Below, in pieces: positions 6,160 through 57,664 of a stretch of 64,000 nucleotides of DNA. This DNA is from Kalmusia sp. IMI 367209 (Eukaryota; Ascomycota; Dothideomycetes; Pleosporales; Didymosphaeriaceae), in contig JAPEUQ010000009.1 in NCBI GenBank assembly GCA_027946365.1, forward strand, positions 1,959,349 to 2,023,348, written 5' to 3'. Below the pieces are notes generated by a model. That model searched no databases. It worked only from the letters and a program-made list of their open reading frames with translations, and was not told the origin of the DNA. How positions within the stretch are numbered: position 1 is the first letter of the stretch; each line of letters begins with the position of its first letter. The translations under genes and the position numbers were made by a program.

Positions 6160-7913
6160 TCATTTCGTGAAGATGCCGTTCTTCTTCTTATATTCATCTA
6201 AGACTCCGTTGTAATCCTCGGGGCAGTATGGGGAGATGAGCTCCTTGATGAACGAACCTTTTCGCTTATTCTGAATGCCCATGTCCTTAAGCAACATGTC
6301 TATGTAGGGGATGCCCTCAAAGACGAAGTCTGGGAGACTTGCACCGTACCCACAAGGGTATCGCCATTTTCCCCATTGCGTGTGCATCATAATCTCGTTC
6401 GTGATTTCGTCCTGAGTCTTTGCCTCGCGGTCCAACAGATCATCAAAGTAGGCTGTGATCCAAAGGCCCTGAGTGCTGGCGCAGATCGCCGTGCTGACCG
6501 AAGAGATCATACCTGCGAAGGCGAAGTTTCGCTTTGCAAGCATACCCGATGGAACCATGAAGCGATAGTAACGAAGAGGTTCTGCGGCCTTTTTCGGCTT
6601 GGTACGTAGAATTGGTTGATTCTCTAGGATCGGGAAGTCTTTCAGTACTTTGGCGTCATACTCGAGGCTGAGATTCGCCTGTTCTTTCGCATCGATTGGA
6701 AGACCTAAGCCTGCCTCGTCCAGACCCGAGAACGTGATGGTTGACTCTTTCTTCCAGCCTGTCGAACAAATCATAGCATCTGCTACCAGTTCCTCCCCGT
6801 TCTCGAGCACAACCTTTCCAGGAGCAAGGCGGTCGATGTTCTCAACGTGTACACGGATCTTGCCATTGCGTACCATGTCGAAGAAGCTAGTGTTGTAATT
6901 CAGGATACTTAGGCCGCTGCCAATCCAAAAGACAGAGTGCCACGGTTTCAGCTTCTGAAGCTCGGGGTGGTCGTCATATTGGTTGCGCTGTAAGACATCA
7001 TTGCCCATCATACTCCAGAAGCCCTTCACAAGCATTCGTCCAATCGAAGTCTTTTCCAGGAAATTGCGCACAATACCAAAGCCATCCTCATGTCCCCATG
7101 GACAGGGACTGAACCAAGACAAGGCCCGAACGTTGAGGATAGTGTCTATGCGGTGCTGAAGCGGTGTCACGTGTCGGGGTGCAATCCAAACAGGTCCGTT
7201 ACTATCAGGCTTGATGATCAAATCAACAAGAACACCGCTCTCGACCATCGCATACGCCACGTCATATGCCGACTTGGCACCTCCCACAACGACAGCTTTC
7301 TGTATTCCTTTGAGCTCGTCTGCTCTTTTGCAAAACTCCTTCGCGTGGAAGAAGGGCTTTTCAAAAGTTTTCGCATCCTTGTAATGAGGGATGTTAGGTG
7401 TCGACGTGAGACCCGTTGCTAAGATGAGTTTTTTCGTTCGTATTTTCCTCTCTCCACCTGGCGATGCGACTGTCAATATCCATCCAGATTCTGTGGACTC
7501 AACAAGACCGACAGTTGAGTTGAGTTGCAATCTCTCGTATATCCCGTAATGTTTCGCGAAATCAGTCAGGTATCGGTTCAAGACCGTCCCAGGGATGTGA
7601 CTGAGCGATTTCACACCGTAGACCTCTTCGCTCATGGGAAAGTCAGGAAATTCGTAGCTGCCAAGCATATTGTTGGACTTCAGGCCTGGGTACAATCGCT
7701 TCTCTGACCATGTGCCTCCGACCGACTCGTTCGACTCTAGCACAGCAATTTTCTGCTCTGGATGGGATTGGATGTATGCCCGAGCGGCCCCTAGGCCAAA
7801 CCACCCTGATCATCACTCCGTCAGAACAGCCTTACGAGGGTCATAGGCAGGTAGGTTAACGTACCAGAACCAACTACGACAAGGTCGTAGAACTCAGGCA
7901 GTGTTGCAATCAT
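6160..7913 (-). CDS. Flavin-containing monooxygenase (FMO/BVMO-like)
   Basis: A predicted 564-aa FAD- and NADPH-dependent monooxygenase. Exon 1 is 7913-7865 and exon 2 is 7805-6160 on the minus strand, with a 59-nt intron between (GTACGT...TCAG). Splicing creates the FAD-binding motif GSGWFGLG at residues 15-22 behind a hydrophobic beta strand (YDLVVVG). A second, NADPH-binding Rossmann motif is VVVGGAKSAYDVAY near residue 191, with Ala-Lys in place of the usual Gly-x-Ser-Gly. An FMO-like F-x5-H (FEKPFFHAKEF) lies near residue 165-175, and ATGLTSTPNIP near 146-156 is the typical linker. The C-terminal third (WGKWRYPCGYGASLPDF) is seen in fungal secondary-metabolism FMOs. It converges on the regulator gene and is followed by the SDR on the same strand. 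Substrate unknown. Confidence 0.9.
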
Positions 7914-16135: not shown

Positions 16136-16659
16136 ATGCGCTACGCACTCATCTTCACAGCTTTGGCCCTTACTGTTCTCACCGCTCCGCTCCCAGTGGT
16201 ACGTCGATGATGTGCTCGGCAGACTTGACTCGTAAACGCTAACGGCAGACGCAGGAGCAAGCGCGCGATGTTGCCACCCATGAGCAGCGATCCGTGAGGC
16301 GATATGGCGATGGCGTGACATTAGATTCACGCGAAGTGGAAATTGAAGCAGACGAAGAGATCGAGGTCAATGAGCGTCGCGAGGCTGAAGCAGATGGGAA
16401 TCTTCGACCAAACAGGCGCGAGGCTGAAGCAGATGGCAACCTTCGCCCAAACAGACGTGAGGCTGAAGCAGATGGCAACCTTCGACCAAACAGGCGCGAG
16501 GCTGAAGCAGATGGCAACCTTCGACCAAATAGTGCTCGCGATGGAAACCTTCGCCCTAACAGAGCTCGTGAGGCTGACGCAGACGGCAACCTTCGACCAA
16601 ACCGAGCTCGTGACGCCGAGGGTTTCGCCCCCATCAGTCGCTCGCCGATCCCAGCCTAG
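16136..16659 (+). CDS. Secreted Kex2-processed repeat peptide precursor (pheromone/KEP-like layout)
   Basis: A predicted 157-aa secreted precursor. Exon 1 (16136-16198) encodes exactly a signal peptide core (MRYALIFTALALTVLTAP), followed by a 50-nt GTACGT...GCAG intron; exon 2 is 16249-16659. After an acidic pro-region (residues 22-63) come six copies of DGNLRPN at about residues 70-76, 83-89, 96-102, 109-115, 119-125 and 133-139. Four are preceded by RR-EAEA, and one by R-EADA. RR (or RAR/SAR in the last copies) marks Kex2-type cleavage, and EAEA resembles the Ste13 dipeptidyl-aminopeptidase spacer of yeast alpha-factor precursors. Predicted products are short peptides related to DGNLRPN. 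They lack the Trp/Cys pattern of known Pezizomycotina pheromones and any Tyr of dikaritin cores. No DUF3328 oxidase is nearby. Role unknown: signalling, surface or defence peptide. Confidence 0.8.
16381..16611 (+). repeat. In-frame 39-bp coding tandem repeat of the peptide precursor
   Basis: Four near-identical 39-bp units (encoding EAEADGNLRPNRR) followed by shortened or altered units (SAR, RAR spacers). The first four differ by a few mostly synonymous changes, such as ggg/ggc and cgc/cgt, suggesting recent amplification or gene conversion. Because the unit is a multiple of three, other frames and the reverse strand stay open too. Confidence 0.9.
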
Positions 16660-18806: not shown

Positions 18807-19001
18807 GGCGAGCCATGACTGGGCTGAACAGAGCAAAATACCGCAAGCATAGTGTCGTATGCGCCGAGAGAATGCGTATTCTATGGATGGGGAGAGAAAC
18901 GGCTTCGTTGTTTGGTTTGCGCAGCGCGAAGACTACTCCACCTTTGTGATGAAGGTGAATTTTCGAATTCAACGTTTTATAGGCAACATTGAAATCTTTT
19001 T

Positions 19002-43545: not shown

Positions 43546-44070
43546 TATAGTGATATGTCTCTTGTTTCAGGTCCAGGTCAAGGCTGGCATGGGACATAGT
43601 CAAAATCACAGCGTGAACGGAAAGATGCCCCTCTCCCTACCTACGCTATATTGGGGAAAGGATAATGGCACCGTTTAACTAACTATCTATATATATATAA
43701 AAGCCAATGGCACCGTTTGGCTGACTGTCCATGTATATGTAAGAGTCAATGGCACCGTTTGGCTAACTGTCCATATATATGTAAGAGCCAATGGCACCGT
43801 TTGGCTGACTATCTATATATATATAAGAGTTAATGGCACCGTTTGGCTGACTGTCCGTGTATATGTAAGAGCCAATGGCACCGTTTGGCTGACTGTCCGT
43901 GTATATATAAGAGCCAATGGCACCGTTTGGCTGACTATTTATATATATATAAGAGCCAATGGCACTGTTTGGCTAACTATTTATGCATTTTCGAATTTCG
44001 TCACACGGCTAACAGCTTCCACACCATCATGAAGTTAAACTTATCCACTATCATTATTGTGACTACGTAT
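43546..44070. other. GC-richer, little-RIPed segment carrying a minisatellite
   Basis: At about 43546 the sequence abruptly regains CA/TG (tcaggtccaggtcaaggctg) and stays so to about 44110. It holds a unique 110-base leader, the 42-bp tandem array, and an ATG (44070) opening the decayed ORF that follows. It may be the 5' end of the element whose coding remains lie downstream. Confidence 0.55.
43664..43985. repeat. 42-bp minisatellite, about eight copies
   Basis: The core AATGGCACCGTTTGGCTGAC recurs at a constant 42-base spacing from 43664 to about 43985. Variable parts (tgtccatgtatatgtaagag versus tatctatatatatataagag) differ by C-to-T and G-to-A changes, so individual copies have been RIP-mutated to different degrees. 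Because 42 is a multiple of three, a frame from 43843 stays open, but it is a by-product. Confidence 0.92.
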
Positions 44071-54329: not shown

Positions 54330-55175
54330 GTTAGGTTGCCCCCAGGGGCGAAAAAGTGGTGCAAGGACGACCCATAGGGGTAAAGACCCTATAGAAGACT
54401 GCCCCCGGGGCAAAGACTCTGGCAGACTGCCGTAGGAGTAAAGACTCTGGCAGACTGCCCCCGGGGGCAAAGACTCTAGCAGACTGCCCCAGAGTAAAGA
54501 CTTTGCGAAAGACTTGGGGGCAAAGACTTGGCAGACTGCCCTGGGGGCAAAGACTGGCAGACTGCCCCTGGGGGCAAAGACTCTGGCAGACTGCCGTAGG
54601 AGTAAAGACTTGCGGAAGACTGCCCGGGGCAAGACTCTGGCAGACTGCCCGTAGGGAGTAAAGACTCTGCGGAAGACTGCCCTCGGGGCAAGACTCTGGC
54701 AGACTGCCGTAGGAGTAAAGACTTCGGAAGACTGCCCCTGGGGCAAAGACTCTGGCAGACTGCCGTAGGAGTAAAGACTCTACGGAAGACTGCCCCCGGG
54801 GGCAAAGATGGCAGACTGCCTGCGGAAGACTGCCCCCGGGGGCAAAGACTCTGGCAGACTGCCGTAGGAGTAAAGACTCTGCGGAAGACTGCCCCCGTGG
54901 GCAAAGACTTTGCGGCAGACTGCCGTAGGAGTAAAGACTCTACGGAAGACTGCCCCTGGGGCAAAGACTTAGCAGACTGCCCCTGGGGGCAAAGACTCTG
55001 CGGAAGACACTCTGGGGCAAAGACTGCCTAGGGAGTAAAGCAGGAAGACTGCCCCTGGGGGCAAAGACTCTGGCAGACTGCCGTAGGAGTAAAGACTCTG
55101 CGGAAGACTGCCCCCGGGGGCAAAGACTCTGGCAGACTGCCCCTGGGGGCAAAGACTGGAAGACTGTTCTCAGGG
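54330..55175. repeat. GC-rich minisatellite at the AT-island boundary
   Basis: About 850 bases of two alternating half-units. One has gcagactgccgtaggagtaa, the other gaagactgcccccgggggca; both are joined by agactctg. Unit length varies by indels of a few bases. The reverse strand gives GCCCCCGGGGGC palindromes and stays open for long stretches, producing spurious Ser/Pro/Gln/Arg-rich frames. The array shows no RIP decay although it directly abuts RIPed DNA. Confidence 0.92.
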
Positions 55176-55327: not shown

Positions 55328-57664
55328 ATGAAGCGCAAAGGCACAAATGATACAAGAGTAACAAAAGGCAACGTACAACGATTAAGGAAGTCAGAGAGGT
55401 AGATTCTCTACGATCAAGCTGCGCCATACGAACTGGCAACAGCTAGATTTCCGATCGACGCGCTCAGCCCAGATTGGAGCCTCGGTATCAATCGACCTAT
55501 CGATGAAGCGCATAAGCGTCGCCTCTATGAGATTTTCAAAGAGGTGGGTGTCCTTCGGCGAGATGCAAGCCATCGGTTACAGGTTGCTTGCTCCAAGGCG
55601 CAAGTACAGCAGATGCTAGACCACCTTCACCAGGAGGGCCAGGCTCAGACTACCGTCGCTTCAGGCGAGAGCGGTAATGAGGATAGTACGAAGTGGCCAT
55701 CGTTCAAAAGCTGGGATAGCGTAATTGGAGAAAAGGTAGAGCTTATCGCGGGCCATCATCGAGTGGAAGCTTTCAAAGAGTATCTCCGACATTTTCGATT
55801 GCCGGAGGAAGAGCGTTGGTGGGTATGCAGCATCTACGACAAAGGTCAGTTTCACCCCCTACTTGTGTCAGCCAAGGCAAGCTAACCCTAAGAGGTAGAT
55901 ACGCTTCCACCACACCTGCGGATCAAGCTCCGTGCCAATCGAGAGGATACCATACTTCCAGATAACCATGGCCAGATCTGGACCGAATTAGCAAGCCTGT
56001 CCTCGAATAATGGCCAGCTGTTCCAGGGGTCAAACGGGTCAGTTGAGCAGGAGATGCTGGAGCAACTCAGGCTCAGCAGTCGAGTGAAGTTTCCCGTGCG
56101 ACGGCTGGCTACACTATGGCGGAACACTAGTTGGAGCCCTATAATCACGAGATGGTGCCGTACCTCGATCGGACAGGTAACCTTTAACATCTCCACGTTT
56201 GAATGGATGGCAAGCTGCAGGATAGACGATGTGAGCGCAAACCCAGGCTGAAACCCTTACCCATCCCATGCTAAGCGACACTGGCAGTATTGGTTCGCTG
56301 CCTTTGACGAGGTTATCGAGCTTACCTCGGAAATCCGCGACCGGTGGGGACTGGTGGTCCAATTGGCCGATTGGACCAAGCTGGCCAGCTTACCGCAGAC
56401 ACGCAGCAGAGGTGACGTACAGGGCCTATTCTATCCTAGCCTCGAGCCCGACGCGGAGCCTCACCCGTCCAGCAGTCGCCGAAGAGATTTCTTCTCAACA
56501 GCGAGCGACGATGCATATCATGGCTTGCATGGATGGGTGTCTGCAGAGCCAGGTAGACGCTTCGTTGACATCCAGGCGCTCCTCAAGACTACGAAGCAGG
56601 AAGGAAGCTCATGAGCGTCTTGATGACGCACATCAGCCAGTGGTTGAACCAGGAGCCTGCCAGGGTCGTTGACCGTGAGAATAACAAGCCCGCGTTACGG
56701 AAGGACTTGGTGCCTGCGCTGCGAGAAAGGCATGGAGAAGAGGCAGAAGCTACCTCGCGGATCCTCCAGCAACGGGTCCTCGACTACGTGCGTAAGAATG
56801 GAAAGGACTACACCAGCACAATGCTGGAGCACTACCTCCACGAATATCCAGCCAGACACGAAAACGCCTACAGCGCACGCTTCAAGCACAAGGTGTGGAG
56901 GAGACGCTACTCATCGTCGCAGACTTCACGGGGCCAGCTCTCCGGCACAAGTACCTGGCCGACTTCCTTCCGGAGGAGACGTGCGCGACCAGCGCAGATC
57001 TTTCACCGACGATCGCCCAAATCGCGCGTACGCTCATCTGCCAAATCCCAGAAGTCGCCAACGACCCAGCACTCCAGTCGAAATGCGCAGGCCAGAAGCT
57101 ACTTGCGATGATGCAGCCAGTGATCCAACAGTGGATCTCTGAACAATACGCAGAAGCGCCGGGCAGTCCCAGCAAAGAGGAGCAGTCGTCCACGGCTGAG
57201 GGGATGGAGGTAACGCTCGAGACGGCTGAGGGGATGGAGGTGACGCTCGAGACGCTCCCAAAGAGCTAAGCACACCCACCCTAACCCAAGGGCAAGGAGT
57301 ATCCACGGCGCATCGGCAGCGTAGGTCTCCATCTCCCGGAGCGCAGGCGGCATCACATAGGCACGGATCTGCGAAAGAGCAAGGCGCTACCCAAACCTTA
57401 CAACACGGGCCACAAGCGGCACCAGGCAGAGAGTCGCCGCACGGCGACGTGAGCAGCCTTACCTCGGATGAGCTGCGCAGCCTTCGCAAGCAACACCGTC
57501 AGCAGAAGGACCGACACGTCGGGTCTCCTCAACGGCCACCGCTAGACCAACGACTACCGCTAGACTCCACCGGCCCGCAGATTCCGAGCGAGCTAGCCCC
57601 CACAGCCTATCACGGGCTCACGACATTGAGGCAAAGGACATCAGCGAAACACGGTACAAGGTAA
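55328..57664 (+). pseudogene. ParB/sulfiredoxin-like domain protein gene (DUF3723-like?), frameshifted
   Basis: A large + strand gene with good coding sequence but several lesions. From ATG 55328, TAG at 55400-55402 interrupts the frame; it could alternatively be removed by a minimal 45-nt intron, 55358-55402. Introns at 55845-55892 and 56177-56275 fit GT-AG. The marker is ELIAGHHRVEAFKEYL followed by ERWWVCSIYDK, like the ParB-type GxHRxxA box and the WW motif of fungal DUF3723-type proteins; this comes from memory of families, not a search. Downstream the frame jumps by single bases near 56587, 56897 and 57262, each time continuing into clearly coding sequence (SQWLNQEPARVVDRENNKPA; ETLLIVADFTGPALRHKYL; LTSDELRSLRKQH). 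A 30-bp unit encoding TAEGMEVTLE is duplicated at 57196-57255. Confidence 0.6.

What the first reader, a model, noticed from the sequence alone, without database searches (positions are those of the whole stretch)
16136..16659. A new Kex2/Ste13-style repeat peptide precursor with core DGNLRPN
Seen directly: a signal peptide encoded exactly by exon 1, then six DGNLRPN copies, four of them in RR-EAEA-DGNLRPN-RR units. RR cleavage by Kex2 and EA-dipeptide trimming by a Ste13-like peptidase are established for alpha-factor precursors. The core lacks the Trp/Cys pattern of Pezizomycotina pheromones and has no Tyr, so it is neither a typical pheromone nor a dikaritin core. I infer a secreted family of 7-residue peptides of unknown function, one of the most testable candidates in the window.
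Basis: partly seen in the sequence, partly recalled or inferred. Interest (0 to 1): 0.82.

Follow-up and report, generated by a model that had tools for sequence, protein, structure and literature searches.

The report
Fungal pheromone-style repeat peptide precursor
A fungal gene encodes a secreted precursor built like the one for yeast alpha mating factor and probably releases several copies of a seven-residue peptide, DGNLRPN, which is probably not the fungus's mating pheromone; this is a new orphan member of a known class whose job is unknown.

Summary
In the window, identified as the last 64 kb of a contig of cf. Kalmusia sp. IMI 367209 (Didymosphaeriaceae, Pleosporales), exons 16136-16198 and 16249-16659 splice to 157 residues: a signal-peptide-like N-terminus, an acidic pro-region, then six copies of DGNLRPN. 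One correction: four copies follow RR-EAEA, but only three of these are also followed by RR; the last three copies are followed by SAR or RAR. All nucleotide differences between core copies are synonymous in this frame, so the frame is coding and the peptide looks constrained. The genome holds one Kex2-type gene and two genes with a whole DPPIV domain. It also holds a separate alpha-pheromone gene (eight CRFPGQPC copies) and one STE2 gene, so DGNLRPN is probably not the mating pheromone. No UstYa match was found nearer than 610 kb on this contig (which ends 47 kb to the right), so a dikaritin-like cyclic product is unlikely. The gene is single copy, and two capped searches of a 5.77-billion-protein database found no relative. 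[quoted passage not shown] Function as a linear extracellular signal is inferred. New member of a known kind.

The parts
16136..16198 (+). Exon 1: ATG and signal-peptide-like N-terminus, MRYALIFTALALTVLTAPLPV
   Evidence: translation; hydropathy maximum 2.63 over residues 5-15. SignalP not run.
16199..16248 (+). 50-nt intron with GTACGT donor, CTAAC box and CAG acceptor; alternative in-frame acceptor ends at 16254
   Evidence: No transcript data.
16249..16659 (+). Exon 2: pro-region, repeats and C-terminal tail, stop included
   Evidence: matched as an open frame without stops in the own genome.
16297..16302 (+). First Kex2-type RR site (residues 38-39), end of the leader
16303..16374 (+). Acidic 24-residue spacer YGDGVTLDSREVEIEADEEIEVNE
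16375..16413 (+). Unit 1: RR-EAEA-DGNLRPN, followed by RR
16414..16452 (+). Unit 2: RR-EAEA-DGNLRPN, followed by RR
16453..16491 (+). Unit 3: RR-EAEA-DGNLRPN, followed by RR
16492..16530 (+). Unit 4: RR-EAEA-DGNLRPN, followed by SAR and not by RR
16531..16656 (+). C-terminal tail with two more core copies (16540-16560, 16582-16602) bounded by SAR/RAR; no dibasic site

Best explanation
The gene encodes a KEX2-processed repeat protein. The signal peptide sends it into the secretory pathway. Kex2 cuts after RR, a Kex1-type carboxypeptidase removes the RR left at the C-terminus, and a Ste13-type dipeptidyl aminopeptidase strips EA-EA and stops at DG. This yields at least three, and up to six if SAR/RAR sites are cut, copies of the linear unmodified peptide DGNLRPN outside the cell. 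Shown here: the reading frame, the repeats, the constraint on the core, the presence of Kex2-type and DPPIV-type genes, a separate mating-pheromone gene, and no UstYa match nearby. Inferred: splicing, secretion, cleavage, and above all the function. I think a diffusible signal outside mating is most likely, acting on the fungus itself or on its plant or microbial neighbours (about 0.5 for a signal of some kind, no preference between targets). The confidence below is for the precursor and its processing, not for that function.
For: Architecture; synonymous-only divergence of the core copies; one P_proprotein match, Kex2 type, on C11; two matches over the whole DPPIV_N domain and one weak partial match; canonical Cys-type alpha-pheromone precursor at C23:793056-793667; a single STE2 gene; nearest of 102 UstYa matches on the contig about 610 kb away. 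Among 33 hits of a degenerate pattern that includes [KR]R-EAEA, the four here are the only cluster. Literature: KEPs with a STE13 signature are proposed as hormones with roles other than sex (PMC6339444, section 15 read), and such precursors are processed to linear peptides in mushrooms (PMC9769878, abstract and passages).
Against: No transcript, splice or peptide evidence. No relative was found in any species, so cross-species conservation of the core is untested. Half of the copies lack RR on at least one side. The test of constraint assumes that the copies diverged independently, which conversion between copies could upset. Deleting six KEP genes in Coprinopsis gave no visible phenotype (PMC9769878), so a function may be hard to see.
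Confidence: 0.8

Rival explanations
1. It is a mating alpha-pheromone precursor, possibly a second or degenerate one: DGNLRPN would be a Cys-less shortened cousin of the pheromone unit EADPNCRFPGQPC.
For: Same processing style. EA-D-x-N-x-R-(gap)-P lines up with the genome's own pheromone unit (p = 0.009 against random cores).
Against: A full canonical pheromone gene exists. There is only one STE2 gene. The resemblance is weak and was noticed after the fact (p = 0.05 against shuffled cores). The pheromone gene reads as a single exon with a different leader.
Confidence: 0.07
2. It is a RiPP (dikaritin-like) precursor whose core is cyclised by UstYa oxidases.
For: Signal peptide plus Kex2-bounded repeats; the genome is rich in UstYa genes (102 matching pieces). 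An FMO-like monooxygenase gene lies at 6163-7809, and flavin monooxygenases occur in the ustiloxin cluster (recalled).
Against: None of the 102 UstYa matches is near: on this contig they lie at 27 kb and 1365 kb against 1975 kb for the gene, although the contig ends 47 kb to the right. The core has no Tyr. PMC6339444 (section 15) says STE13 signatures are absent from the precursors of toxic cyclic tetrapeptides and epichloecyclins. A UstYa acting from elsewhere is not excluded.
Confidence: 0.06
3. The peptide is made but its role is structural or waste: a hyphal-surface peptide of the Rep1 type, or a repeat tract with no function as a free peptide.
For: KEPs include Rep1 of Ustilago maydis (PMC6339444); KEP deletions in Coprinopsis had no phenotype (PMC9769878).
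Against: DGNLRPN is short and hydrophilic, Rep1 lacks the STE13 signature (PMC6339444, section 15), and the core residues are constrained.
Confidence: 0.2
4. The coding strand is the antisense one: an open frame of 138 codons (16242-16655) with LFGRR-LPSASASR repeats.
For: The antisense frame is open through the array and also has RR in each repeat.
Against: Its residues vary in 2 of 6 core columns against 0 of 6 in the sense frame; no signal-peptide-like start was seen in that frame (translation, by eye).
Confidence: 0.03

Closest known systems
KEX2-processed repeat proteins (KEPs) with a STE13 signature (PMC6339444)
   Same: Secreted precursor, tandem identical peptides between dibasic sites, XA dipeptides after the Kex2 site
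   Different: Core sequence not found elsewhere in the searches made; located in an ascomycete that also has a proper alpha-pheromone gene, whereas that paper says the signature is generally only dedicated to alpha pheromones in Ascomycota
Ascomycete alpha-pheromone precursors (yeast MFalpha1, Pezizomycotina Ppg1 type; here the gene at C23:793056-793667)
   Same: Leader, Kex2 sites, EA/EP spacers, repeats
   Different: Core of 7 residues without Cys or Trp (known range 9-24 residues, PMC6339444), RR instead of mostly KR, intron after the leader, not the mating gene
Dikaritin precursors (ustiloxin, phomopsin)
   Same: Signal peptide and Kex2-bounded repeats
   Different: No Tyr in the core, STE13 signature present, no UstYa match nearby
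Agaricomycete STE13-signature KEPs (Pleurotus MSGVAADW, PMC9769878)
   Same: Alpha-factor-like processing of a short linear peptide outside mating
   Different: Unrelated core, other phylum; there the peptides were detected, here not tested

Membership tests
KEP (PMC6339444 pipeline) | N-terminal signal peptide, no membrane protein | tested here: inconclusive
   Hydrophobic stretch at residues 5-15 only; SignalP and TMHMM not available
KEP (PMC6339444 pipeline) | In-silico cut at KR/RR gives at least four fragments, at least three similar | tested here: met
   Five RR sites give six pieces, three of them EAEADGNLRPN, a fourth copy at the start of the tail (counted by hand)
KEP (PMC6339444 pipeline) | Repeats fill at least 15% of the protein | tested here: met
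   3 x 11 of 157 residues = 21%
KEP with STE13 signature | XA or XP dipeptides right after the Kex2 site | tested here: met
   EAEA after 4 of 5 RR sites
KEP with STE13 signature | Peptides released by Kex2, Kex1 and Ste13 | not testable with these tools
   Kex2-type and DPPIV-type genes are present; Kex1 not searched; cleavage not shown
Alpha mating pheromone precursor | Pheromone-type core (two Cys, or PYGxPxG in Pleosporales) | tested here: not met
   Core DGNLRPN; the Cys-type core is in another gene; a PYG[LM]P[IV]G DNA pattern (TTR leucine codons not covered) has 0 hits in the genome
Alpha mating pheromone precursor | Activates Ste2 | not testable with these tools
   Single STE2 gene found
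Dikaritin RiPP precursor | UstYa/DUF3328 gene in the neighbourhood | tested here: not met
   Of 102 matches at E up to 0.001 the nearest on the contig is about 610 kb away; the contig ends 47 kb to the right
Dikaritin RiPP precursor | Tyr in the core | tested here: not met

The most novel reading that the evidence does not exclude
A second, non-mating peptide signal in a Pezizomycotina fungus that keeps the complete alpha-factor processing code (RR, EAEA, short linear core) alongside an intact mating-pheromone gene. It may have arisen from a pheromone-type unit (EADPNCRFPGQPC to EADGNLRPN) by loss of the cysteines, and it would be read by a receptor other than Ste2.
Probability: 0.2. Interest if true: 0.6.

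Novelty: new member of a known kind. Interest (0 to 1): 0.4.

Why it matters
KEPs with STE13 signatures have been proposed as fungal hormones apart from mating, but their roles and receptors are open. Here the mating pheromone is separately accounted for in the same genome, the peptide is seven residues long and cheap to synthesise, and no UstYa match lies near it. That makes it a clean case for asking what such a peptide does. It was not found in the protein database, which does hold this strain's annotated Ste2, so such genes may be missed by annotation.

Tried and rejected
Relatives: the whole precursor (only the 7987 candidates sharing most words were scored) and residues 1-95 (550 candidates) found nothing at E up to 10. 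A local control showed that the scoring step would give 2.2e-19 or better to all 33 randomised relatives (25 with 10 to 50% of residues redrawn, 5 with changed cores, 3 sharing the repeats only) with the full query, and 8e-9 or better with residues 1-95. The candidate step needs shared 5-residue words, so very diverged relatives (as few as 1 shared word at 50%) could still be missed, as could proteins outside 0.55-1.75 times the length and unannotated genes in related fungi. The strain's own precursor was also not listed, so it is probably not annotated in that size range.

Pfam: two sub-threshold hits (E 0.028 and 0.055), taken as chance. Rfam: 0 matches in the window at gathering thresholds. 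Pleosporales PYGxPxG pheromone pattern: 0 hits, which led to the Cys-type search (23 hits, reversed control 2). Paralogues: only the gene's own two exons matched. Other precursors with EAEA after a dibasic site: 33 pattern hits against 32 for the reversed control, only the four here clustered. Homology to the pheromone unit: too weak to claim. Starship-linked families (association recalled) near the contig end: PF11917 and PF12520 gave 0 matches, but the controls did not ring either, so this is uninformative. Literature: DGNLRPN 0 papers, CRFPGQPC 0 papers, in the open-licence library only; 13 papers since 2020 hold 'KEX2-processed repeat', of which I opened two in part.

Full report
What is there. 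The window is G000:C30:1959349-2023348 in a 42,784,582-base genome of 30 contigs; contig C30 ends at 2023348, so the window is the contig's last 64 kb. A Ste2 protein spliced from this genome is 100% identical over 380 residues to 'pheromone alpha factor receptor [Kalmusia sp. IMI 367209]', and its contig has the same length. The strain paper lists 30 contigs and 42.78 Mb for cf. Kalmusia sp. IMI 367209, an endophyte from the CABI collection (PMC10027605, passages read).

The gene. Exon 1 (16136-16198) encodes MRYALIFTALALTVLTAPLPV. A 50-nt intron follows, with GTACGT donor, CTAAC box and CAG acceptor. Exon 2 runs from 16249 to the stop ending at 16659. The product holds a single Met, the first residue, so the gene needs exon 1. 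A second acceptor at 16254 keeps the frame. The 157-residue product reads: leader - RR - acidic 24-residue spacer - RR-EAEA-DGNLRPN four times - SAR-DGNLRPN-RAR-EADA-DGNLRPN-RAR-tail.

It is coding and the peptide is constrained. Because the repeat is short, several frames are open through it, including a 138-codon antisense frame with its own RR repeats. The copies decide between them. All differences between the six core copies are synonymous in the sense frame; over the first six codons each of the other five frames has 2 to 5 variable residue columns. Six of seven third positions and none of 14 first or second positions vary (p = 1.3e-4); seven changes all being synonymous has p = 8.5e-5. 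Gene conversion between copies would weaken the test but would not by itself favour synonymous changes.

What it is not. The mating pheromone is elsewhere: a pattern for the Cys-type core gave 23 hits (reversed control 2), eight of them spaced within C23:793056-793667. The sequence there encodes a 229-residue precursor with eight CRFPGQPC copies between KR/RR and EA/EP spacers. The Pleosporales-type PYG[LM]P[IV]G pattern, which leaves out TTR leucine codons, gave 0 hits. One STE2 gene is present, in two pieces. A dikaritin is unlikely: of 102 UstYa-matching pieces in the genome the nearest on this contig is about 610 kb away, and the core has no Tyr. Two cautions: the contig ends 47 kb to the right of the gene, and an FMO-like monooxygenase, a kind of enzyme known from the ustiloxin cluster (recalled), lies 8 kb to the left.

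Processing machinery. One P_proprotein (Kex2-type) match, and three DPPIV_N matches of which two cover the whole domain. Whether either of the two is the Ste13 orthologue was not tested; Kex1 was not searched.

Distribution. The gene is single copy. No relative was found in two protein searches (the first scored only the 7987 candidates sharing most words), and a local control shows the scoring would have picked up even distant or core-swapped relatives once they were candidates. Among 33 hits of a degenerate pattern that includes [KR]R-EAEA (reversed control 32), only the four here cluster. Related fungal genomes could not be searched at DNA level here, so 'orphan' means orphan among the proteins of that database.

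Setting. Ten frames of the left 15.3 kb were scanned; they include an amidohydrolase, a Zn-cluster regulator, an FMO-like monooxygenase, a short-chain dehydrogenase and a DUF3176 protein. The AT-rich block starts about 2.3 kb after the gene (GC 0.51 to 0.28 at 19001).

Comparison with what is known. It fits the published KEP definition on the points that could be tested (PMC6339444, section 24, section 6 and the second part of the results read). The same paper states that the STE13 signature is generally only dedicated to alpha pheromones in Ascomycota, and proposes signature-bearing KEPs as hormones with other roles. In mushrooms such precursors are processed to linear peptides, and knockouts of six KEP genes in Coprinopsis had no visible phenotype (PMC9769878, abstract and passages). 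A survey found 2560 stand-alone KEPs without homologs among 7878 (PMC7329392, passages), so an orphan KEP is common. What may be less common is a clear STE13 signature in an ascomycete beside an intact pheromone gene; I could not check the surveys' supplementary tables for other such cases.

Verdict. A sound candidate secreted peptide gene, new as a sequence in the searches made, ordinary as a kind. The alpha-factor-style processing with a non-pheromone core is the part worth testing.

Noticed in passing
L052 (G000:C23:793056-793667): This Pleosporales member (Massarineae) has a Cys-type alpha pheromone (CRFPGQPC x8), whereas PMC6339444 describes Pleosporales as having PYG[L/M]P[I/V]G pheromones.
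   Followed up: partly
window 19000-54000: AT-rich block (GC about 0.2 to 0.35) in which 19500-43000 has strong RIP-like dinucleotide bias (TpA/ApT 1.44, (CpA+TpG)/(ApC+GpT) 0.21, against 0.71 and 1.23 in the left 19 kb).
   Followed up: partly
window 16242-16655, minus strand: Open antisense frame of 138 codons with RR-bounded LPSASASR repeats opposite the precursor; judged a by-product of the repeat.
   Followed up: yes
window 54394-55157: Long imperfect tandem array (28/56-bp units, AGACTGCC...GGGGGCAAAG) at the right edge of the AT-rich block.
   Followed up: no
window 43664-43980: 42-bp tandem repeat, about 7.5 copies, largely within an open frame 43679-44029.
   Followed up: no
window 55403-55882: Open frame with a sub-threshold DUF3723 match (E 0.0081); the genome-wide family search found no match but its control did not ring.
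   Followed up: partly
whole genome G000: 102 UstYa (PF11807) matching pieces, suggesting a large dikaritin-type repertoire; this finding is not near any of them on its contig.
   Followed up: no
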